Origin: Gemmatimonadota bacterium
Lineage (GTDB): Bacteria > Gemmatimonadota > Gemmatimonadetes > Palauibacterales > KS3-K002
Assembly (NCBI GenBank): GCA_020344375.1
Contig: CP070823.1
Location: 1,816,614-1,871,766 of the forward strand
Length of the DNA: 55,153 bases
Direction of reading: 5' to 3'
The notes under the pieces were generated by a model. That model was not told the origin of the DNA and did no database searches. It saw nothing but the letters and a program-made list of their open reading frames with translations. Shown piece after piece: positions 5,744-24,360 of the stretch; position 1 is the first letter of the stretch, and each line of letters starts with the position of its first letter. Made by a program: the position numbers and the translations under genes.

Positions 5744-6032
5744 ATAGGACGAGTCGCCGAAGCGAGGTGCGCAGCGCAATGGTGGTGGTGGAAGCGGACG
5801 TGGTGTGGGCCAAAGCTGTAGGATTTCCTACGATCTTCCAGTGCCCGCCTTTGGCCCGGCTGAAGGCAATGCTCGGGCAGTCGTTCCGGGACAGAGTTGA
5901 GCGTCGGAGGGAGACGCGAGCGCCCTTCAGCCGAGTGGAGTCCCACGCAGAAACCGGAACCGTAGCCAAGCCGTAAGGGTTCAGGGGCCTGAGGGCAGCG
6001 CAGCCGAGTGCTGCGCCGCGTGTGGAGGGGCG
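5744..6032 (+). other. 289-base intergenic region before the transglycosylase gene
   Basis: No convincing gene. It holds a short inverted repeat GTAGGATTTCCTAC near 5819 and a six-pair hairpin GCGCAG/CTGCGC near 5997-6015, with no T-tract after either. An open frame of 65 codons from ATG 5779 has no ribosome site and no recognisable similarity. The length and the hairpins would fit a structured 5' leader for the downstream cell-wall gene, but I could not match it to a known riboswitch consensus by eye. Confidence 0.3.
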
Positions 6033-6749
6033 ATGGCGGTGGAACGAATGGGCCAGGATAGGAGAGGTATGCGAAATCATACATCGACGTGGCAAAACGA
6101 GGCTGTCCCGGTGAGGTGGCCGCTCAACTACGCCAGGTTGGCGGCTGTGCCGTTACCCGTCTGGGCGCTCGTGCTGATCGCGACCGTGTTTGGTACAGCC
6201 GGCGTGCTGGACGTGGCGCCCGAGATGAGCAACCCGGCAGCGGTGCAATTGGGCTCCGAGCTTGCGGTCCTTACTGGCGAGGTGCGGGGGCTTCGGAGCG
6301 AGCTGGAACTCAGCGGTCTCGAGATGGAGCGCTTGGAGCAGATCCAGCGCTACTCGAGCGAGTTCGGGATTCCGGCCGACCGAGCCATGCAGGTCTATGA
6401 CATCGCCCTGGCAGAGGATGTGAATCCCGAGCTTGCGTTCAACCTCGTCAGGGTGGAGAGCGGTTTCCGTCGCACGGCGGTGAGTTCCGCGGGCGCGATC
6501 GGTTACACGCAGATCCGTCCGAGCACGGCGCGCTGGCTCGATGCAACGGTCGAGGCAAGAGACCTGTTCGATACGGAGATAAACCTGCACCTAGGGTTCC
6601 GCTATTTCCGCTATCTCCTCGACGAATACAACGGTGACACCCGTCTGGCGCTGCTCGCGTATAACCGCGGTCCCGGTCGTGTCGGTGATCTGCTGACGTT
6701 GGGCATCGATCCCGCGAACGGGTATGCGAAGGCGGTGCTGGGTGAGTAG
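6033..6749 (+). CDS. Membrane-anchored lytic transglycosylase (SLT domain)
   Basis: Cleaves the glycan strands of peptidoglycan with formation of 1,6-anhydroMurNAc. A hydrophobic segment near residues 40-60 (LPVWALVLIATVFGTAGVL) anchors the protein; a short coiled stretch follows, and residues about 115-235 form an SLT lysozyme-like domain. The catalytic Glu is in RVESGFRR, followed by GAIGYTQIRPSTA and LALLAYNRGPGRV, the standard motifs. 238 residues from ATG 6033; ATG 6069, just after GGAGAGG, is an equally good start. The gene ends at a strong bidirectional terminator shared with the convergent mltD-like gene. Confidence 0.88.
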   Translation: MAVERMGQDRRGMRNHTSTWQNEAVPVRWPLNYARLAAVPLPVWALVLIATVFGTAGVLDVAPEMSNPAAVQLGSELAVLTGEVRGLRSELELSGLEMERLEQIQRYSSEFGIPADRAMQVYDIALAEDVNPELAFNLVRVESGFRRTAVSSAGAIGYTQIRPSTARWLDATVEARDLFDTEINLHLGFRYFRYLLDEYNGDTRLALLAYNRGPGRVGDLLTLGIDPANGYAKAVLGE

Positions 6750-14021: not shown

Positions 14022-15212
14022 TCACCCCTCCAGTAGTGAAGGGATGCTCACCTCGGAAGCTGACGGGTGAACGAGCACACCGTCCCCAGTCGGCAGGCTG
14101 ATGACGGCGGGTGCATCCTTCTCGATTCTATGGAAGCCTTTCCCCTCGAGAATTCGGTGCACGAAGATGCGCCGCACAAATACCATGACGCTCGCCAGCA
14201 CCGGAACGGCGACCAGGAGACCCACGAAGCCGAGCAGCTTCGCCACCACCAGCACGGAGATGATCGTGAGCACCGGCGGCAGTTCTACCTTCTTCTCGAA
14301 GACCATCGGGGCGACGACGTTAGCCTCGAAGATATGCACGATGACGCCGAGCAAGATCACCAAGAGCGCCTTCGTGAGCCCGCCAGCGGAGAGGACGAAC
14401 AACGCCGGGAGCAGCGTCGATACAATGGTGCCGAAGAAGGGCACAATCACAGCCAGGCCCGTGAACACACCGAACGCGAGCGAGTAGGGCACCTCGAGCA
14501 GGATGAGTCCGATCCACGTCAGCAAGCCGAGGACCAGCATTGATATGCCCAAGCCGACCAGCCAGGCCCGCAGAGTGTGTCCCAGATCGGCCAGAATGTC
14601 ACGGGCCAGCTCACGGTACGCGGGCGGCGTCAGCGCGATCACACCCTCACGGTACAGCGACGGCTTGAGCGCCATGTAGATCCCCATGATCAGAACCGAG
14701 ACGACGTGTATCAGAACGCCGATCCCGGAGAACACGTAGGGCACGACGTCGCCGAAGAACTCGCTGACCTGCTGGTAGACTCGGTCCACAAAGCCCGGAC
14801 CTTCTTGGCCACCCTCACTGATCGTCGGGCTGAGGATGCGACCGAGCAGGTTGTCCTCTTGGGCCAGCCGTTGGAGCTCGAGTTCCAGCGCGTTGATGTG
14901 CCGCGGCAGAGCGCTGATGAGCCCCTCGAACTGATTGATGACGGGCGGAACGATCAGCAGCCCGACAAGGCCGATCACGAGTATCGTACCGAGCAACGCG
15001 GTGATCAGCCCGAGCCCGCGTGCCAGACCCAGTCGGACGGACAGGAAATCCGTGACCGCGGCCAGGTAGATGGCGAAGAGCGCCGAGATGAACAGCAGGA
15101 AGAGGATCTCGGCGACGCTGTAGATGAACAGAAGGATGAGGACGACGAATACAGTCGTCGCCAGAACGCCGTAGGCCTGGCGCGAAGTGAAGATCCGCGG
15201 AGTGTCAGCCAG
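14022..15212 (-). CDS. AI-2E family transporter (PerM/UPF0118)
   Basis: Polytopic membrane protein of about 396 residues. Hydrophobic segments near residues 15-65 form a pair of helices, followed by a soluble stretch with GLISALPRHINALELELQRL, and five or six helices after residue 150, including GLAVIVPFFGTIVSTLLPAL and the family pattern HIFEANVVAPMVF. Members export diverse small molecules or ions; the substrate cannot be predicted. No ATG or GTG reaches the N-terminus. TTG 15275 would overlap pspA by 71 bases; CTG 15212, with GGAGGAGGAAG just upstream, gives the 8-base overlap CTGGCTGA seen at other junctions, so I favour it. Confidence 0.85.
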   Translation of the reverse strand: MADTPRIFTSRQAYGVLATTVFVVLILLFIYSVAEILFLLFISALFAIYLAAVTDFLSVRLGLARGLGLITALLGTILVIGLVGLLIVPPVINQFEGLISALPRHINALELELQRLAQEDNLLGRILSPTISEGGQEGPGFVDRVYQQVSEFFGDVVPYVFSGIGVLIHVVSVLIMGIYMALKPSLYREGVIALTPPAYRELARDILADLGHTLRAWLVGLGISMLVLGLLTWIGLILLEVPYSLAFGVFTGLAVIVPFFGTIVSTLLPALFVLSAGGLTKALLVILLGVIVHIFEANVVAPMVFEKKVELPPVLTIISVLVVAKLLGFVGLLVAVPVLASVMVFVRRIFVHRILEGKGFHRIEKDAPAVISLPTGDGVLVHPSASEVSIPSLLEG

Positions 15213-15975
15213 CTTCTTCCTCCTCCGCCCCCTCTTCCTCGATGATCTCCGCCTCGCGCACCTCGTCGGGGGCAACTTCCGACTCGGCGCCCGCCGCCGG
15301 CAATAAGCCCATTTCTTCCTTTAACGCAGTCAGTCTGCGCTCCACGTCAATGTCACCGCCCTCAAGACGTGCGAACTGCTGTTCCAATTCGTCACCACCG
15401 AGCTCCTCGTCCACCTCCGCAGCGGCCAGCGCCCGCATCTCCGCCTCTTCGATCCGCTCTGCCATACGCTCGAAAGCCTCGAACGAGCTGCGATCGGCGA
15501 GCCCGGCCATCGTCTCATGGATCCGCTTCTGAGCCTCGGCTCGCTTCTGTCGGGCAATTAGGAGATTCCGCTTGCGCTTCGCCTCTTCGATCTTGCTGCT
15601 CAGCTGCCGCAGCGTGTCCTTCAGCTTCTCGGTCTCGGAGGCGTGGCCTCGCCACTGGTCCTCGAGCGTCCCCGCGTGCCCGCCGTGCTCCTGGCTGCGC
15701 AGTAGAGCCTGACGAGCTAGATCCTCGCGACCCTCGCGGAGGGCCAGCTTCGCGCGCCGCTCCCAGTCGGCGCTCTGATCTCGCTCATCCTGAACCTGGC
15801 GCCGCAGCTTCCGCTCGTCAGCGATCGCTACCGCGACCTCTTGCTTCGCCTGCGCCAGTTGGGATCGCATGTCATCGATGATCTGGTTCAGCATCTTCTC
15901 GGGGTTCTCTGCCCGAGCGATAAGGTCGTTGAGATTCGACCGGATCATCGTCGATAGCCTGCTCCAGATACTCAT
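15205..15975 (-). CDS. pspA: Phage shock protein A / IM30 family protein
   Basis: Membrane-remodelling ESCRT-III-like protein that protects the inner membrane under stress. The 256-residue protein begins MSIWSRLSTMIRSNLNDLI, an amphipathic helix followed by the family motif ARAENPEKMLNQIIDDM, then an almost continuous coiled coil to about residue 215, and an acidic tail (EEEGAEEEE). ATG 15975 lies behind GAGAGAG. It sits in a minus-strand operon with a YbjN-like protein and small membrane proteins upstream and a permease downstream. There is no PspF or sigma54-type promoter in sight; the likely promoter is the sigma70-type one at 17681. Confidence 0.93.
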   Translation of the reverse strand: MSIWSRLSTMIRSNLNDLIARAENPEKMLNQIIDDMRSQLAQAKQEVAVAIADERKLRRQVQDERDQSADWERRAKLALREGREDLARQALLRSQEHGGHAGTLEDQWRGHASETEKLKDTLRQLSSKIEEAKRKRNLLIARQKRAEAQKRIHETMAGLADRSSFEAFERMAERIEEAEMRALAAAEVDEELGGDELEQQFARLEGGDIDVERRLTALKEEMGLLPAAGAESEVAPDEVREAEIIEEEGAEEEEAG

Positions 15976-15985
15976 GGCTCTCTCT

Positions 15986-16375
15986 CTATGGCGTCCGGTA
16001 ACGGGACAGTGTCTCGTAGTGCGACCGCAAGGCCAGCATGATGCTCTCCAGTGAGGCCTGGAACTCGCTGAAATCAAGATCCGCCAGCTGCAATGCGTCC
16101 GTCAGCACGATCTCGTTTTCGGCCAGGCCGTAGGCACCGTGCAGGAGGTCTGCCGCATTGAGTTCAAGAAGCTCACGGAAAAGCCCATTCCGCAACTCCT
16201 CGTCGTCAGGCGCATCCATTACGGTGACCCGCATCAGCAGCAGTGGAGGGTCATGGGTGACAAAAACCGGCGCGACCTCGTGGACGTCGCCCACCACCCA
16301 TAGCCCCTCCTCAAGCTCCTGGTACGGCAGCTCCAGCCTGAGCATGAAGTTCTCTACGTCTTCGCGCGTGACCAT
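15986..16375 (-). CDS. YbjN / CesT-type chaperone-fold protein
   Basis: A 129-residue acidic protein: MVTREDVENFMLRLELPYQEL, then alternating strands (GLWVVGDVHEVAPVFV, PPLLLMRVTVM), and helices with LFRELLELNAADLLHGAYGL and a final long helix. This order is typical of YbjN and type III secretion chaperone (CesT-like) folds, which bind partner proteins. The ATG 16375 is preceded by GGAGG at short spacing. Its place directly before pspA, ten bases apart, suggests that it works with PspA, perhaps as an adaptor; that is inference. Confidence 0.7.
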   Translation of the reverse strand: MVTREDVENFMLRLELPYQELEEGLWVVGDVHEVAPVFVTHDPPLLLMRVTVMDAPDDEELRNGLFRELLELNAADLLHGAYGLAENEIVLTDALQLADLDFSEFQASLESIMLALRSHYETLSRYRTP

Positions 16376-16384
16376 GGCCTCCGC

Positions 16385-16678
16385 CTATGTTCGATTGTCA
16401 ACGTCCTCGATCTCGCCAGGACCAAGACTGAGACGTCGCGGTTCCGACAGCAGCCGCGTCAGGAAAGACTGCTCCTCGACCACCCGGTCCAGACGGTCAC
16501 TGAGCTCCTCCACGTCCCGCCGCAGCGTCTCCAGCTCGGTGTGCGAGACCGACCCTTCCGGCGCCCGTGGCGGCACAAGGTTACGAACCGCCTCCCCCAA
16601 TGCCTTACCTACCGGCGAGTCGATCAGAATGATCTTGGCCAGGATAACGAGCACCAGCAGGTACAGTATCGGCATCAT
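16385..16678 (-). CDS. Small single-pass membrane protein with coiled coil (PspB-like topology)
   Basis: About 97 residues. An N-terminal transmembrane segment (PILYLLVLVILAKIILI) is followed by a linker with proline and then a coiled coil, HTELETLRRDVEELSDRLDRV. This is the layout of PspB, the small inner-membrane partner in enterobacterial Psp systems, but the sequence is not recognisably PspB. ATG 16678 and ATG 16675 are both possible starts and no strong ribosome site is seen. It precedes the YbjN-like gene by nine bases, so it belongs to the psp-like operon. Confidence 0.6.
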   Translation of the reverse strand: MMPILYLLVLVILAKIILIDSPVGKALGEAVRNLVPPRAPEGSVSHTELETLRRDVEELSDRLDRVVEEQSFLTRLLSEPRRLSLGPGEIEDVDNRT

Positions 16679-16794
16679 CAGCAACTACGGCGCCGTGGGG
16701 CCGGGGGTTTCTCCACTGAGGGAAACCGCCCGCACGGACGGGCGGCCCGCGCGACCTCCAGCAAATATCGGCTTGTTACGGCGGATTGGCCAGG

Positions 16795-17319
16795 TCAGGA
16801 GGAACGCTCCCGGCGCGTGCTGCGAAGCAACAGCGACAGCTGAGCGTGCAGGGCCCCACACTTGTCCCTTGCCTGACTCCACTGCTTTCGTCGCGCCAGC
16901 GCCCGCACCTCTTCAAGCCCCTCTGCCATGATCTCCAGCGAGCCCGTGCCCAGCACCAGCTCCGCGCCCGCAGTACCAGCCGCTGACTTCCTCAACTCCT
17001 CCAGCATACGCTCCGACTCCGCAAGCTGATGCTCCACTCGCGAACGAAGCTCATCCTTCGAAAGCACTGGCTTGACCGCTGGCGCAGCCGCCGGCTCCGC
17101 AGCGGCCTCTACCCCCGCAACCGCCCGCACCGTGGCCTTCTCTGCCACTTCCGCCGGCCCGGTCACCGTCTCCGCCCTGACGGCAGGCCCTGGCGCCGAC
17201 GGTTCAGCGGCAGCCAGCTCCCCGACGCGGGCAGGTCGGCGACGACGCAGCAGTACGAAGGCCACAATCACCCCGAGGACCGCGACGACGGCCACGATGA
17301 TCACGACTTCGCTCAACAT
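16795..17319 (-). CDS. Membrane-anchored Ala/Pro-rich protein with helical C-terminus
   Basis: A 174-residue protein. Residues 4-24 form a transmembrane helix (EVVIIVAVVAVLGVIVAFVL) followed by RRRR, so the rest faces the cytoplasm. Residues 30-85 are low-complexity, rich in Ala, Pro, Val and Glu. Residues about 88-170 are helical with KDELRSRVEHQLAESERML and a tail RKQWSQARDKCGALHAQLSL. An AGGAGG ribosome site directly precedes ATG 17319. The family is not one I recognise. It lies between a 66-residue membrane protein and the psp-like genes on one transcript. Confidence 0.6.
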   Translation of the reverse strand: MLSEVVIIVAVVAVLGVIVAFVLLRRRRPARVGELAAAEPSAPGPAVRAETVTGPAEVAEKATVRAVAGVEAAAEPAAAPAVKPVLSKDELRSRVEHQLAESERMLEELRKSAAGTAGAELVLGTGSLEIMAEGLEEVRALARRKQWSQARDKCGALHAQLSLLLRSTRRERSS

Positions 17320-17349
17320 CCCTCCTGAGAGATCATGCCGGTGGCGAGA

Positions 17350-17550
17350 CTAGACGGGGAGTCGATCGGTGAAGAACAGGATCAGATAGGCCACCCCCCA
17401 GGCAATGAGGAAGGTGTAGGCGCCGAGCAGCCAGGCTCTGGACCGTCTGCGCTTGCCGTCGACTCCGGCGGGCCCGGCCTCAACGGGTGCGAGTGCGGGG
17501 GTGTTGGCCTCTTCCAGCGCAATCTGGTCAGCTACCTTACGTTCGAGCAT
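17350..17550 (-). CDS. Small membrane protein
   Basis: A 66-residue protein with a charged N-terminal half (MLERKVADQIALEEA), an RRRSR stretch and one C-terminal transmembrane helix, WLLGAYTFLIAWGVAYLILF, ending FTDRLPV. It is the first gene after the promoter at 17681-17710. No known family is evident. The clean topology and position in the operon support it being real. Confidence 0.5.
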   Translation of the reverse strand: MLERKVADQIALEEANTPALAPVEAGPAGVDGKRRRSRAWLLGAYTFLIAWGVAYLILFFTDRLPV

Positions 17551-17680
17551 CTCACTGTTCTCACGCTGCCGTTAAGAAAGCCAACCACCACTCCTGAGCC
17601 CCTGCCCTAACCGGCAGTTCCCCATCCCTGGCTCTCTAGCCCAGCGATCCAGCCGAGACGTCTTTGTTGAAAGGGCCAGT

Positions 17681-17710
17681 AACCTATCGGTGGTTCGGGG
17701 ATGGTGTCAA
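17681..17710 (-). promoter_or_regulatory. Sigma70-type promoter of the psp-like operon
   Basis: TTGACA (17705-17710) and TAGGTT (17681-17686) on the minus strand are separated by 18 bases. It follows directly on the stop of the 103-residue membrane protein at 17715 and would leave a leader of about 120 bases before the 66-residue membrane protein. The -35 is perfect, the -10 keeps T1, A2 and T6. Confidence 0.5.
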
Positions 17711-17714
17711 GAGA

Positions 17715-18026
17715 TCAACGCCCGCCCGCAGCGGCGGTCTCCAGCTCCTCAACGCGGCTCGCCAGCTTCTGGATGAGGCCCTTGTACGCGATGATGGTGC
17801 GAGCCCACGCCAATCTCTCCCAGGCGGTTATCAGAACGTAGGCGACGGCAAAGAAGAGCAAGAATACCCAGGACTGGATGAGAGGCGACACGACCACGAG
17901 GGCCACCGCCAGCGCAAGCGCACTGACCACGACATAGCGCACCCGACGTCGAGTGATGGAGAGGTCCGAGCTACGCTCGAGCAGCAGCTTCTCCGTAGCG
18001 GTGAGCCCCAGAGGTCCTTCTGTCAT
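17715..18026 (-). CDS. Two-helix membrane protein of unknown function
   Basis: A 103-residue protein from ATG 18026, chosen because GGAGGTG lies seven bases upstream. The N-terminus (MTEGPLGLTATEKLLLERSS) is soluble, then RRRVRYVVVSALALAVALVVV and WVFLLFFAVAYVLITAWERL form two membrane helices, followed by a coiled C-terminal helix KGLIQKLASRVEELETAA. No family recognised. It lies between the kinase gene and the psp-like operon promoter, with 101 bases to the kinase stop. Confidence 0.6.
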   Translation of the reverse strand: MTEGPLGLTATEKLLLERSSDLSITRRRVRYVVVSALALAVALVVVSPLIQSWVFLLFFAVAYVLITAWERLAWARTIIAYKGLIQKLASRVEELETAAAGGR

Positions 18027-18127
18027 CTCTATCCACCTCCAGTTTCGTCCGATCAATCAGTCTACGAACACGGATCCAAGCAGGTGCTTTCGGTCTCCCA
18101 AGGCCCGTATCCCGCAGCGAGCGGAGG

Positions 18128-19708
18128 CTAGAGTTGGGGGATGTCCTTCGTGTCCTCGTCTGCTCCCTTCGTCACAGCCCGGCTCGCGCCGATGAGGACG
18201 TAGTCTGACAATCGATCCCGCAGCCCAGAGAGGATACGAAATCGTTTCTTGACCTTCCGCTGATAGAGCGCACGCAAGGCGGCGTAGCCACCGCCCCAGA
18301 CGGCCACCCCACCGAGGACAGCGACCACGGTGCCGCCTCCCAAGGAGAGCGCGGCGGCACCGACGACCACTGCGGCCAGGCCACCAACCATGACCGAGAG
18401 AATGCCCAGGAACTGCTCGTCATGGCCGGGGTGTTCCACGATGCGGATTCTCGTCTCTCCACCCCCCGGAATCACGTTAACCCGCAGTCGTTCCGTCCAG
18501 CCCTGGGAGCCGGGACTGGAGTCCCAGGAGAGTGATTCATCCAGAGTCTCGTTCAGCTGCCCGGATTGTCCTACCGTTTCGCGGATCTCCCGCAGCAGCC
18601 ACCCATAATCCTCCTTCGACACCTCTCCATCGACAGTCTGCTCGAGCTCGATCTTCCCGGTGACACCGAAGTAACCGCCGCGAACCATTCCACCAGCAGG
18701 CCGGTCCAGTGCCCTGGCTGCCTCTCTCACCCGTTCCGGCGGGATGCCGACCTCGGCGGCGATCTGCTGGATGCCGCCCAGGGAGAGCGCACCGTCCAAC
18801 GTTGGCCCGGCTTCTATCTCGGCCGCGCGTCTGACGATCTCCCGCGCCTCAGATTCGCTGTACCTGCGTGTGCCCTTGAACGCGTCAGCGAGGGCCGAGG
18901 CGAACTCGCCGGCAGTCAGGAACCTGTCCTCTGGGCGCAAGCGCATCGCCCGTACCAGCGTCTGCTCCACGAGCCCTGGAAGCAGGTCGAGTCTCTCACG
19001 GTGGTGCGGCGGTGCGTCAACAAAGCGCCCCAACTTGCCAGCCTGCTCGGTCACCCACATGCCTGGGTTCTCACCGATAGTCGCCTCGTAGAACACGCAG
19101 GCCAGACTGTAGATGTCTGTCCGCTCGTCCAGGTCGGCGCGCCCGGCGGCCTGTTCCGGGCTCATGTAGCCCAGCGTGCCCACCGGGAACCCCGTGCGTG
19201 TCAGATGCTCACCGCCGGCCGCGCTGATCGCCTTCGCGACGCCAAAGTCAGCCACTACGGCGTGCCCCTCGGAGAGCAGGATGTTCTCCGGCTTGATGTC
19301 ACGGTGCACGATGCCCCTTCGGTGAGCATAACCCAACGCGTCCGCCACCTCACCTGCGAACTCGAGGGCAGTCCCCGGCGATAGGCACCCCTCCCGCTCG
19401 AGCAGTGCCCGCAGCGAATCCTCCACGAACGGCATGACATAGTAGAGAAAACCTCCCGCCTGCCCCGAGTCGATGAGCGTGAGAATATGCGGGTGAGTGA
19501 GCTGGGCGGCGATGCCGATCTCCTGCAGGAACCGCTCCGCGACGACAGATGCGGCGAGTTCCGCGTGCAGCACTTTCACGGCGACCGGGCGCTCGTGCCT
19601 GACGTCCTCGGCCATATAGACGGTGGCCATGCCACCGCGCCCAAGCACGCGCTGCAGCTCGAACCGCTCCGGAAGGGCGGAACTGAGACTCTCCGGTATG
19701 TCGCTCAT
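18128..19708 (-). CDS. Ser/Thr protein kinase with membrane-spanning C-terminal region
   Basis: A 526-residue Hanks-type kinase. The kinase domain covers about residues 16-275: glycine loop [13 protein letters not shown] lysine in VAVKVL, catalytic loop [18 protein letters not shown], activation segment [15 protein letters not shown] and [11 protein letters not shown]. Residues about 285-335 form helices ([14 protein letters not shown], then [14 protein letters not shown]), and after a strand-rich stretch two hydrophobic segments near 445-485 span the membrane, leaving a basic tail. It has no PASTA or other extracellular sensor. ATG 19708 gives the natural lead [12 protein letters not shown] 19762 would add 18 residues. 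Targets are unknown; the neighbouring small membrane proteins are candidates by position only. Confidence 0.9.
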
Positions 19709-19858
19709 CCCCTTGGGTCGCTCGCGGTCCGAAAGGTATCTTCGACGCTCGTTGGCCAGCAAGCCAGCGATGCGGCACAGCCCTCACTTTGATGCGAGCG
19801 ACCGGGCGCTCTACCTAGGCTTCCACGCTCCTAGCGTGTCCCATCCCGTACAGCAGGT

Positions 19859-20038
19859 TCAAGCTTTCTTCTCTTCGATCAACCGGTTCGCGCGGAGCAG
19901 CAGCAGGATGGTGTCGATCAGCAAGGCAGCAGTTCCCATGTAGAAGAGGGTCTGTCCGGTGCCACTCCCGATATAGAAGAGGGCGACGATGTAAAAGCCG
20001 AGACCGACCAGGAAGAGGAAATAGCAGAAGTAGATCAT
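19859..20038 (-). CDS. 59-residue two-helix membrane protein
   Basis: A short gene that size cut-offs easily miss. It starts MIYFCYFLFLVGLGFYIVAL, continues with a turn containing GSGTGQ and a second hydrophobic stretch with YMGTAALLIDTILLLLRAN, and ends RLIEEKKA with a positive and negative tail. GGGAGAAGGA lies just before ATG 20038, a good ribosome site. A small hairpin, CACGCT/AGCGTG, follows at 19824-19838. No family recognised. The leader upstream contains the cloverleaf-like repeat at 20084-20154. Confidence 0.6.
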   Translation of the reverse strand: MIYFCYFLFLVGLGFYIVALFYIGSGTGQTLFYMGTAALLIDTILLLLRANRLIEEKKA

Positions 20039-20816: not shown

Positions 20817-21536
20817 TCAGTCGTGGCTCGACCCCTGACCTGCTGACGACTCCGGAATCTTAACCACGTTGGGCGGCTCAAGTCGCGCCAGCTTGGACAA
20901 GTTGCCGACGATACGGCGACCGAGCAGCGTGATCATGCCCAGGACACCGAGCAGCCCCAGCAGATCGAGCGTGCCGATCGGCACGTTCCTCAGCTCGAGG
21001 ACCGGTTCGAATCCGAGTGCGAGCGCACTTCCTGCCAGGATCAGGATAACCCGCACCTCAGTCGGTCCGATCCAGTCGTACCCGAACTGGAACAAGCCCA
21101 GCACATAAGTCTCGAGGTACACGTTGATGGACATCAGGTAGAAGGCAATCAGCATTGCCAGCGCCACCGACAGCAGGAGGTAGGGCGAGAAGCCGAGCCC
21201 CACACAGACGAAGGCAGCTGCGAACATATCGGTGATGTGGTCGAGATAGTAGCCGTAGCGCGGTCGCTCGATGTGCCGTACCCGCGCCAGCGTACCGTCC
21301 AGACTGTCGCCGAACCAGTTCACCACCCAAAGGACGTTAGCCGCCCAGAGATAGCCGGTGCTCCGTCCGGAGAGCGCGTAGCAGATGCCGATGGCCAGGG
21401 CCGACACAACGCCCACGGCAGTGAGGTGGTCCGGTAGGACCCAACTCGGCAAGCCGGCAGCAAGCCGCGGCAGAACGTACGCTTCGAACGGGCGCAGCAG
21501 GTGCTTGGGTTCACGGCGATGCTCAGCTTCGGACAT
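20817..21536 (-). CDS. CDP-alcohol phosphatidyltransferase family protein
   Basis: Integral membrane enzyme that joins a CDP-linked alcohol (usually CDP-diacylglycerol) to a second alcohol in phospholipid synthesis. The 239-residue protein carries the family signature D-x2-DG-x2-AR-x8-G-x3-D-x3-D as DSLDGTLAR followed by [10 protein letters not shown], and about six hydrophobic segments. The acceptor alcohol (glycerol phosphate, inositol phosphate or other) cannot be told from this. Its ATG overlaps the end of uvrA by 14 bases. Confidence 0.88.
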
Positions 21537-24360
21537 GCTCGGCCCCCCGTCTCTTTCGCCTCCGCCGGTTCAGCAGAGGTCGCAAGAATTGCCCCGTGAA
21601 GCTCTCCGCTACTTCCGCCACCTCCTCCGGCGTCCCAGCCGCCACGACTTTCCCACCCCGGTCGCCGCCCTCCGGCCCCAGATCGATAATCCAGTCCGCT
21701 GTCTTGATGACGTCGAGCTGATGCTCGATCACCACCACGGTATTGCCGCGATCGACCAGCCGGTGGAGCACGTCCAGCAGCATGCGGATGTCCTCGAAGT
21801 GCAGGCCGGTCGTCGGCTCGTCCAGGATATAGAGGGTGCGCCCGGTCTGGACCTTTGACAACTCAGTCGCCAGCTTGACGCGCTGCGCTTCGCCGCCCGA
21901 AAGCATTGTCGAGCTCTGCCCCAGCGTCATGTAGCCCAAACCGACATCGTGAAGTGTCTGCAGTTTCCGTCTTATCGTCGGGATCGGGTCGAAGAACTCC
22001 AGAGCTTCTTCTACGGTCATGGCCAGCACATCGGCGATGTTCTTCCCTTTGTAGAACACCTCGAGTGTCTCGCGATTGTAGCGTCGCCCGCGGCAGACCT
22101 CGCACGGGACATACACATCGGGCAAGAAATGCATCTCGATCTTCACCAACCCGTCGCCCCGACAGGCCTCGCAGCGACCGCCCTTCACGTTGAAGCTGAA
22201 GCGTCCCGGCGTGTAACCACGGATCCGTGACTCAGGTAGCTGCGCGAAGAGCTCACGGATCGGAGTGAACACGCCTGTGTAGGTGGCCGGGTTGGAGCGC
22301 GGTGTTCGACCGATAGGCGACTGGTCAACATCGATTACCTTGTCCATGCACTCGAGACCTTCGAATCCCTCGTGCTCGCCGGGTATCAGGCGCGAGCGGT
22401 AGAGCCGCCGCGCCAGCTCCCGGTAGAGGATCTCCTCCACCAGGGTCGACTTCCCCGAGCCCGACACGCCCGTGACGCAGATGAAACGGCCGAGCGGGAA
22501 CTCCACATCGATGTTCTGCAGGTTGTACTGACGCGCACCCCGCACCCACACGCTCTCGAAAGGACTTGCGCGCCGCTCCTTCGGCACCTCGATCTTGCGC
22601 TCGCCCCGCAGGTAAGCACCAGTCAGGGAGGACGAGCACGCCAGCACGTCTTCCAGCGTGCCCTCAACCACAACGTCACCACCGGTGCGGCCAGCGCCTG
22701 GGCCCAGATCCACAACGTGATCGGCTCGGCGGATCGTGGCCTCGTCATGCTCCACCACGATGACCGTGTTGCCGAGATCGCGGAGGGACTCAAGCGTTTG
22801 CAGCAGCCGCTCGTTGTCTCGCTGGTGCAGGCCGATGGAGGGTTCGTCGAGGATATAGAGAACGCCGACCAGCTTGGAGCCGATTTGCGTCGCCAGTCGT
22901 ATGCGTTGCGCCTCGCCACCGGACAAGCTCCCCGCGCTGCGACCCAGCGTCAGGTAGCCAACGCCCACGTCCTCGAGAAACTGCAAGCGCTCGATTATCT
23001 GCCTGAGGATCGGCTCAGCCACGGGGTCTGCGATGTGCGCGCCGCGTCCGAACCCGGACCTTCCCAGGCCCGCGAAGAACTGCCGCGCCCGTTCAGCCGT
23101 CATATCGACAACATTGCCGATCGACTTCCCTTCGAAGGTCACCGCCAGCGCTTCGCGACGCAGTCGACTGCCGCTGCACTGGGCACAGATGGCATCCGAC
23201 ATGAACTCGGCAAGCCGCGTGCGCAGCCCCTCGCTCTCCGTCTCGTAGTAGCGACGCTCCAGCCGCTCGACCGCCCCCTCCCAATCAAGGTCATCCGAGC
23301 CGAGGAGGATCTCTTCCCTCATGGCCCCGGGCAGCTCGTTCCAGGGGGTATTCGGATGGACACCGTGCTTACGGGCCAGCGGCTCGATGGCGCGACGACG
23401 CAGAAACCCGATCGGCGAGCCCCACGGTATCAACACGCCCTCAAGCAGCGACAGGCGACCGTCCGCGAGCATCAGATCGGGGTTCGCGACCTTGCGCGTC
23501 CCCAACCCTCCACAGGCAGGACACGCTCCATAGGGCGAGTTGAATGAGAACTGTCGCGGCTCGAGCTCAGGCAGGTTGATGCTGCAATCTGGACAGGCAT
23601 AGCGCTCGCTGTACAGCTGGCTATCCGGCTCGCCTCCGTCGCTGTAGCGATCGACCTGAACCACTCCGTCAGCGGTCCGCAGAGCGACCTCGATGGAGTC
23701 GGTGAGCCGCGCCCGGTCGTCACGGCGGACGCTCAGGCGGTCAACGACGACGGCGATGTCGTGATCAACGCGCCGATTCAGTTTCGGTGGGTTGTCCAGA
23801 TCGTGGGTCTCACCGTCCACTCGGACGCGCACGAACCCATCTCTGCGCGCACGCTCGAACAGCTCACGGAACTCGCCCTTCCGTCCCCGCACCAGCGGTG
23901 CCAGTATCTCTATCCGGGTCCTCTCGGGCCACTTAAGGACCGCATCGGCGACCTGCTCCGGCGTTTGTCGCCGTACCGGCCTCGAGCAGGATGGGCAATG
24001 AGGTGTACCACAGCGTGCCCAAAGCAAGCGCAGGTAGTCGTAGATCTCGGTGATCGTGCCGACCGTGGAACGGGGATTCCGGCCTGCCGTCTTCTGCTCG
24101 ATGGAGATGGCGGGTGACAGGCCTTCGATCGAGTCCACATCGGGTTTTTCCATCAGCCCGAGAAACTGCCGGGCATACGCGGACAGCGACTCGACGTAGC
24201 GGCGTTGGCCTTCTGCATAGATCGTGTCGAAGGCAAGGCTCGACTTGCCCGACCCCGAGAGCCCGGTGATCACGGTCAGCCGGTTGCGGGGGATGTAAAC
24301 GTCGATGCCCTTGAGGTTGTGCTCGCGAGCGCCGCGAACGATCAGACACTCATCGCGCAT
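21523..24360 (-). CDS. uvrA: Excinuclease ABC subunit A
   Basis: Damage-recognition ATPase of nucleotide excision repair. The 945-residue protein has two ABC modules: first Walker [19 protein letters not shown] near residue 33 and signature [13 protein letters not shown] near 485, second Walker [16 protein letters not shown] near 640 and signature [13 protein letters not shown] near 825. Zinc-finger cysteine pairs are seen as [32 protein letters not shown] and [18 protein letters not shown]. Length is normal. It lies between a lipid kinase gene and a CDP-alcohol phosphatidyltransferase gene on the same strand. Confidence 0.98.

What the first reader, a model, noticed from the sequence alone, without database searches (positions are those of the whole stretch)
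14022..20038. PspA-centred cluster of uncharacterised membrane proteins with a Ser/Thr kinase
Going with transcription: 59-residue two-helix protein, kinase with membrane tail, 103-residue two-helix protein, 66-residue single-pass protein, 174-residue anchored Ala/Pro-rich protein, PspB-like coiled-coil protein, YbjN/CesT-like protein, PspA, AI-2E permease. There is no PspF, PspC or sigma54 promoter. This may be a Psp-type membrane-stress system with a different sensor set, possibly with kinase input.
Basis: inference. Interest (0 to 1): 0.58.

Follow-up and report, generated by a model that had tools for sequence, protein, structure and literature searches.

The report
Sigma-factor-driven membrane-repair operon in Gemmatimonadota
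This stretch of a Gemmatimonadota genome holds a small operon for a membrane-repair protein (PspA), its likely chaperone and a membrane-anchored coiled-coil partner, apparently switched on by a stress-type sigma-factor promoter; the neighbouring kinase is probably just a recent neighbour.

Summary
The genes are there as described, but the nine-gene cluster is not one system. Its core is a TM-coiled-coil protein, a CesT/YbjN-fold protein and PspA, followed by an AI-2E permease in some lineages. In relatives, YbjN lies directly before PspA in 79 of 79 named loci with room to see it. The kinase is present at this locus only in this genus, comes from a multi-copy family, and is absent from 58 of 58 named loci with at least 5 kb upstream, so "kinase input" is not supported. 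The two-helix, 66-aa and Ala/Pro-rich genes are specific to one family.

GAAAC-N17-CGTA, the Bacillus SigW consensus, lies just before the core in this genome and in 49 of 86 non-redundant upstream regions; no other spacer exceeds 3. The same site precedes the anti-sigma gene next to a SigW-like ECF sigma gene in 18 of 22 loci. TM-coiled-coil genes also form tandem arrays of 3 to 6.

Best reading: an ECF-controlled Psp response built on the published CesT/Tir-PspA dyad, without PspB, PspC or a sigma-54 site. New variant of a known kind; regulation is inferred from sequence, not measured.

The parts
16686..16711 (-). ECF (SigW-type) promoter GAAAC-N17-CGTA in front of the core operon; the -10 element ends 7 nt before the ATG, which suggests a leaderless mRNA in this family
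   Evidence: exact match in own genome (G000:C1:1833299-1833324); conserved in family alignment; 49 of 86 non-redundant upstream regions of relatives
16385..16678 (-). TM-coiled-coil protein (cc99), single N-terminal TM then coiled coil ending EEQSFLTRLL; PspB-like architecture
   Evidence: no Pfam family
15986..16375 (-). CesT/Tir-YbjN-fold protein, proposed PspA chaperone/assembly factor
   Evidence: PF22550 1.5e-21; AlphaFold pLDDT 92.8; Foldseek hits to T110839, BacA (8q8o), SycT, YbjN
15205..15975 (-). PspA (ESCRT-III superfamily membrane-remodelling protein), the only PF04012 match in this genome
14022..15275 (-). AI-2E family transporter; frame overlaps the end of pspA, start codon not resolved; follows pspA in some lineages only
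   Evidence: PF01594 8.4e-54; 11 of 62 named loci with at least 1.5 kb downstream
16795..17319 (-). 174-aa protein: N-terminal TM, disordered Ala/Pro linker, C-terminal helical bundle; family-specific neighbour of the core
   Evidence: no fold match at E 0.001
17350..17550 (-). 66-aa single-pass protein with conserved C-terminal TM; family-specific neighbour
17715..18026 (-). 103-aa two-TM protein with C-terminal coiled coil; family-specific neighbour
18128..19708 (-). Ser/Thr kinase with membrane tail; genus-specific insertion, judged not part of the system
19859..20038 (-). 59-aa two-TM protein; judged not part of the core
   Evidence: relative in G007 beside DinB without a kinase (L034, 55%)

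Best explanation
The core cc99-ybjN-pspA (plus the AI-2E permease here) is a Psp-type membrane-repair operon under an ECF sigma factor. Proposed steps: (1) envelope damage inactivates a membrane anti-sigma factor; (2) the SigW-like ECF sigma encoded elsewhere (G000:C1, about 2.607 Mb) is freed and transcribes its own anti-sigma gene, this operon and other envelope genes from GAAAC-N17-CGTA promoters; (3) PspA is made and polymerises on damaged inner membrane; (4) the CesT/YbjN-fold protein binds PspA and keeps it soluble or controls its assembly; (5) the TM-coiled-coil protein anchors or recruits PspA at the membrane, as PspB and PspC do in E. coli. Shown by sequence: gene order, promoter, the same promoter at the sigma/anti-sigma junction, and the (predicted) fold of the YbjN protein. 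Inferred: all physical interactions, the signal, the sigma-promoter pairing and the roles in steps 3-5. The kinase and the three small upstream genes are lineage-specific neighbours, not required parts.
For: Core order: YbjN immediately before PspA in 79 of 79 named loci with at least 450 nt upstream and in 37 of 40 handle loci. Promoter: exact GAAAC-N17-CGTA in 49 of 86 non-redundant 200-nt upstream regions; spacers 5-16 and 19-25 give 0, spacer 18 gives 3, spacer 26 gives 2; 200 dinucleotide shuffles give mean 0.05, maximum 1. Without the six same-family loci in which I first saw it: 44 of 80 (read). Controls: upstream of uvrA 0 of 49, downstream of PspA 0 of 76, random 200-mers 12 of 3400. 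Genome-wide in G000: 50 sites against 6 for the reversed pattern. Sigma link: the same exact site within 300 nt after the sigma stop in 18 of 22 loci, plus one with N16; sigma relative in 20 of 21 genomes; its best NCBIfam models are SigW (3e-48, 3.9e-45). The SigW consensus TGAAAC-N16,17-CGTA is quoted in PMC2375139; pspA is in the SigW regulon of B. subtilis (PMC3498285) and the sigma-E regulon of S. coelicolor (PMC6767563). Other genes behind the G000 sites are largely envelope genes: Toastrack DUF4097, MacB/FtsX, OEP, HlyD, SLT, M50B, Rce1-like, YGGT, Transgly_assoc, also a BlaI-type repressor and GrpE.
Against: 37 of 86 upstream regions lack the exact site; of these, 24 have one at no more than 1 mismatch with spacer 16-18, a looser test. 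The sigma matches SigW models only below their curated cut-offs and the anti-sigma zf-HC2 match is below cut-off. Three of 22 sigma loci have no site. G000 has 19 Sigma70_r2 matches and another ECF factor could read the same motif. Enrichment is weaker in distant families: G046 17 against 7, G048 22 against 6. No expression or interaction data exist. The loci were chosen by PspA similarity, so 79 of 79 describes near relatives only. In G045 and G054 no YbjN was detected.
Confidence: 0.72

Rival explanations
1. Kinase-centred system: the Ser/Thr kinase phosphorylates PspA or the small membrane proteins and is the stress sensor.
For: The kinase looks intact, has a membrane tail and lies on the same strand 101 nt from the two-helix gene; a fragment is in the same place in the one same-genus genome (L032).
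Against: Absent at the locus in 5 of 5 same-family genomes of other genera with the locus and in 58 of 58 named loci with at least 5 kb upstream; multi-copy family (G005 9, G002 5, G007 5, G001 4, G000 2, G004 2 matches); the closest relatives in G001 (C4) and G005 are not at pspA; 13 Pkinase matches in the genome.
Confidence: 0.05
2. The CesT/YbjN protein is a transcription or stress regulator (as proposed for YbjN and AmyR) that titrates a regulator of the operon, rather than a PspA chaperone.
For: Fold hits include YbjN and AmyR; PMC10948618 discusses BacA as a possible regulator.
Against: No recognisable DNA-binding domain in the predicted fold; strict adjacency to pspA; an ECF promoter already explains control; equally good fold hits to secretion chaperones.
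Confidence: 0.2
3. The gene order is only an inherited synteny block (uvrA-ybjN-pspA) without functional link.
For: uvrA precedes the core in 47 of 58 named loci with at least 5 kb upstream, and uvrA has no evident link to PspA.
Against: Insertions between uvrA and the core are tolerated (this window, L097, L119, L146) while YbjN-PspA is not split in 79 of 79; the core has its own promoter. CesT/Tir-PspA dyads are reported in other phyla (PMC11237479).
Confidence: 0.08

Closest known systems
CesT/Tir-PspA dyad (Ravi et al. 2024, PMC11237479; abstract, outline and passages seen)
   Same: A CesT/Tir-fold gene directly before pspA
   Different: No band-7/flotillin, AAA+, spermidine-synthase or ATP-grasp partner among the ten genes scanned here; instead TM-coiled-coil genes, an ECF promoter and sometimes an AI-2E permease. 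The words Gemmatimonad and YbjN do not occur in its main text
bac cluster of Pseudomonas (BacA/BacB, PMC10948618; passages seen) and E. coli yjfI-yjfJ
   Same: CesT-fold protein plus PspA homologue; BacA structure 8q8o is the second-best structural match
   Different: BacA is DUF2170, the window protein is PF22550; different partners
B. subtilis SigW control of pspA-ydjGHI (PMC3498285; passages seen)
   Same: pspA operon in an ECF envelope-stress regulon; same promoter consensus (PMC2375139, passage seen)
   Different: Different partners; the sigma here is SigW-like but below the family cut-off
S. coelicolor sigma-E control of pspA sco2168 (PMC6767563; passages seen)
   Same: ECF promoter before pspA
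   Different: Other -35/-10 letters, other partners
E. coli pspF-pspABC
   Same: PspA; TM-coiled-coil architecture resembles PspB
   Different: No PspB or PspC by profile, no sigma-54 site, reversed order

Membership tests
PspA/IM30 family | PF04012 match above cut-off | tested here: met
   167.8 bits, cut-off 33.9; below the curated cut-off of the E. coli-type equivalog TIGR02977
Classical Psp (pspABC/pspF) | PspB (PF06667) | tested here: not met
   0 of 40 genomes; 3 of 24 TM-coiled-coil members match weakly, best E 0.11
Classical Psp (pspABC/pspF) | PspC (PF04024) | tested here: not met
   0 of 9 genomes
Classical Psp (pspABC/pspF) | sigma-54 promoter | tested here: not met
   no site in 14022-20038
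Classical Psp (pspABC/pspF) | PspF enhancer-binding protein | not tested
   none beside the operon; genome not searched for it
PspB family | homology of the TM-coiled-coil protein to PspB | tested here: inconclusive
   hhalign probability 1.2% (A2) and 24.9% (A7) against E. coli PspB
CesT/Tir-PspA dyad | CesT/Tir-fold gene adjacent to pspA | tested here: met
CesT/Tir-PspA dyad | physical interaction | not testable with these tools
   no complex prediction available
SigW-type ECF regulon | promoter TGAAAC-N16,17-CGTA | tested here: met
   GAAAC-N17-CGTA, first T not fixed; consensus in PMC2375139
SigW-type ECF regulon | sigma is SigW by curated model | tested here: inconclusive
   best models are SigW but scores 164.2 and 154.2 are under cut-offs 209 and 243.1
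SigW-type ECF regulon | sigma gene followed by a membrane anti-sigma gene | tested here: inconclusive
   G000: NF052375 6.7e-9 and zf-HC2 0.015, both under cut-off, with hydrophobic segments by eye; similar ORFs in most of 22 loci

The most novel reading that the evidence does not exclude
Gemmatimonadota use a previously undescribed, tandemly amplified family of TM-coiled-coil proteins (end motif like E-R/E-x-x-F-x-x-R-L-L) as a multi-subunit membrane platform for PspA, functionally replacing PspB/PspC, co-expressed by a phylum-wide SigW-like ECF factor with the CesT/YbjN chaperone. In G045 six such genes stand directly before pspA, in G057 five and in G051 three before YbjN-PspA; G000 has a further ECF-driven array of three elsewhere.
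Probability: 0.4. Interest if true: 0.65.

Novelty: new variant of a known kind. Interest (0 to 1): 0.5.

Why it matters
It gives a testable regulatory circuit for envelope stress in a phylum for which I found no paper on PspA in the held library, extends ECF control of pspA beyond Bacillus and Streptomyces, links the CesT/Tir-PspA dyad to a defined promoter, and points to a coiled-coil protein family as a candidate replacement for PspB and PspC. It also shows that the striking kinase is probably a bystander.

Tried and rejected
Kinase as sensor: rejected by its distribution. Sigma-54 control: no site. Sigma-70 and terminator scan: nothing above chance. A terminator-like hairpin that I suspected between the 174-aa gene and cc99 is not listed by that scan, so I make no terminator claim. 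PspB homology of cc99: not significant; PDB profile hits are generic coiled coils. Fold of the 174-aa protein: no match at E 0.001. Co-occurrence of TM-coiled-coil genes with PspA: any match in 42 of 42 relatives with a strong PspA and in 7 of 17 without (values typed); partly circular because the profile was built from pspA-locus genes, and weak matches may be other TM-coiled-coil proteins such as FtsB/DivIC, so I give it little weight. Not tried: covariation between YbjN and PspA (too few sequences), PspF genome search.

Literature: no paper in the held library has Gemmatimonadota with PspA or PspA, coiled-coil, transmembrane, tandem and Gemmatimonadetes together; related searches were made, of which I saw listings. 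Most subscription papers and all preprints are not held.
Full report
OBSERVATION. The window is part of a single-contig genome of 3.04 Mb; its nearest named relatives are mostly Gemmatimonadota metagenome genomes. PspA is the only PF04012 match in the genome. PspC is absent in 9 of 9 genomes and PspB in 40 of 40.

CONSERVATION. I searched 60 genomes for PspA (own plus 59 relatives): 47 match at E 0.001, 43 of them (own included) with a close relative. Forty regions from these genomes were compared with 17 window genes by tblastn; one of the 40 (L051) surrounds a distant second PspA. The TM-coiled-coil gene (cc99), YbjN and PspA form the recurring unit: YbjN in 37 of 40. In the same family as the window (six relatives with the locus: G001-G005, G007) the 174-aa and 66-aa genes are found in 6 of 6 and the two-helix gene in 5 of 6, between the upstream genes and cc99. 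None of these three is found at the locus outside that family. The kinase is found only as a fragment at a contig edge in the same-genus genome, and not in the other five. The 59-aa gene has a relative in G007 without a kinase.

A second set of 80 named loci (best 80 of 487 confirmed, so near relatives only, overlapping in part with the genomes above) gives, among those with enough sequence: YbjN 79 of 79, cc99 30 of 79 with the narrow profile, 174-aa gene 5 of 77, 66-aa gene 5 of 76, two-helix gene 4 of 74, uvrA 47 of 58, AI-2E 11 of 62, kinase 0 of 58. So the older block is uvrA-(cc99)-ybjN-pspA, and in this family several genes stand between uvrA and cc99; the kinase is probably the latest of them (inference).

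KINASE. Its C-terminal part has 2 matches in the own genome, 4 in G001, 5 in G002, 2 in G004, 9 in G005, 5 in G007 and none in G003 and G006; the full genome has 13 Pkinase matches. A kinase of this family beside pspA in one genus is unremarkable.

PROMOTER. Aligning the 174-aa-to-cc99 gap of seven family members showed a conserved GAAAC...CGTAG pair next to the start codon (G001 has GAATC). Tested on upstream regions from 117 of 120 loci, reduced to 86 non-redundant: exact GAAAC-N17-CGTA in 49; spacers 5-16 and 19-25 give none, 18 gives 3, 26 gives 2; 200 dinucleotide shuffles give mean 0.05 and maximum 1. Leaving out the six family loci that suggested the motif: 44 of 80. Controls from the same 80 named loci: 0 of 49 upstream of uvrA, 0 of 76 downstream of PspA, 12 of 3400 random 200-mers. 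Of the other 37 regions, 24 have a site with at most one mismatch and spacer 16-18, often GAATC. For four of the loci without an exact site the operon head is a TM-coiled-coil gene further upstream, and there L046 and L042 have the exact N17 site and L049 an exact N16 site; L045 has none. The SigW consensus of B. subtilis is TGAAAC-N16,17-CGTA (PMC2375139, passage).

SIGMA FACTOR AND REGULON. G000 has 50 exact sites against 6 for the reversed pattern; G005 45 against 10, G046 17 against 7, G048 22 against 6. I examined 49 of the 50 through loci (the fiftieth is the window's own) and scanned 29 downstream proteins with Pfam, chosen by plausible start and reading frame: MacB/FtsX permeases, OEP, HlyD, SLT transglycosylase, Toastrack DUF4097, M50B and Rce1-like proteases, YGGT, Transgly_assoc, a BlaI-type repressor, GrpE, an anti-sigma, and others without family or without envelope link (peptidase M20, DUF5916). 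Several sites lie inside coding regions and may be chance. One site lies at the stop codon of an ECF sigma gene, directly before its anti-sigma gene. Relatives of that sigma are in 20 of 21 genomes searched; within 300 nt after the sigma stop the exact site is present in 18 of 22 loci, an N16 site in one more, and none in L215, L220 and L222 (a narrower first look gave 16 of 22). The sigma's best NCBIfam models are SigW, below cut-off. None of the other 18 Sigma70_r2 places has a site at its 3' end, judged by eye from the two coordinate lists; one has a divergent site about 200 nt away. I therefore infer that this sigma reads the site. ECF control of pspA is known for SigW in B. subtilis (PMC3498285) and sigma-E in S. 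coelicolor (PMC6767563); for M. tuberculosis sigma-E I rely on memory.

PROTEINS. The YbjN protein is predicted with pLDDT 92.8 in the CesT/YbjN fold; the best PDB matches are T110839, BacA (8q8o), T3SS chaperones and E. coli YbjN. BacA neighbours the PspA homologue BacB (PMC10948618). Ravi et al. (PMC11237479) describe CesT/Tir-PspA dyads and propose a chaperone role. cc99 has one TM and a coiled coil. With a broader profile (alignment A7, and a like one) the family forms tandem arrays: six genes before pspA in L045, three before YbjN-PspA in L046, five in L049, and three behind an ECF site elsewhere in G000 (L192); G005 has a site about 90 nt before two matches. The profile matches 50 of 60 genomes. 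Homology to PspB is not shown. The 174-aa protein is an N-terminal TM, a disordered linker (pLDDT under 50 at 28-76) and a helical bundle without PDB match.

MECHANISM AND VERDICT. Shown: operon structure, promoter, sigma/anti-sigma junction site, fold prediction. Inferred: stress signal, sigma-promoter pairing, chaperone and anchor roles. The finding is real in part; the kinase link is not supported; the regulation is the stronger result. New variant of a known kind.

Noticed in passing
window 5950-5975 (+): A second exact GAAAC-N17-CGTA site, 57 nt before an SLT lytic transglycosylase gene (about 6033-6749 +), a likely member of the same regulon.
   Followed up: partly
window 16685-16794 (-): A second conserved block, CCRATATT-like, about 20-30 nt after the stop of the 174-aa gene in the seven family members aligned; possible regulator site.
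   Followed up: no
L045 8700-10461, L046 10917-11800, L049 11066-12627, L192 1590-2624: Tandem arrays of small TM-coiled-coil genes before pspA or behind an ECF site.
   Followed up: partly
window 21523-24360 (uvrA) and relatives: uvrA upstream of ybjN-pspA in 47 of 58 named loci with enough sequence; reason unknown.
   Followed up: no
G005:C1:483224-483829 (L051): A second, distant PspA-like gene (28% identity) in a same-family genome; similar distant matches in several other relatives.
   Followed up: no
L165 235-1437 and L166 234-1448: Two identical ECF sites before two similar secreted proteins in the same genome; L165 is Toastrack DUF4097 (only L165 scanned).
   Followed up: partly
L198, ORF after the anti-sigma gene (-): The ORF after the anti-sigma gene has a bactofilin-like C-terminal part by eye.
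   Followed up: no
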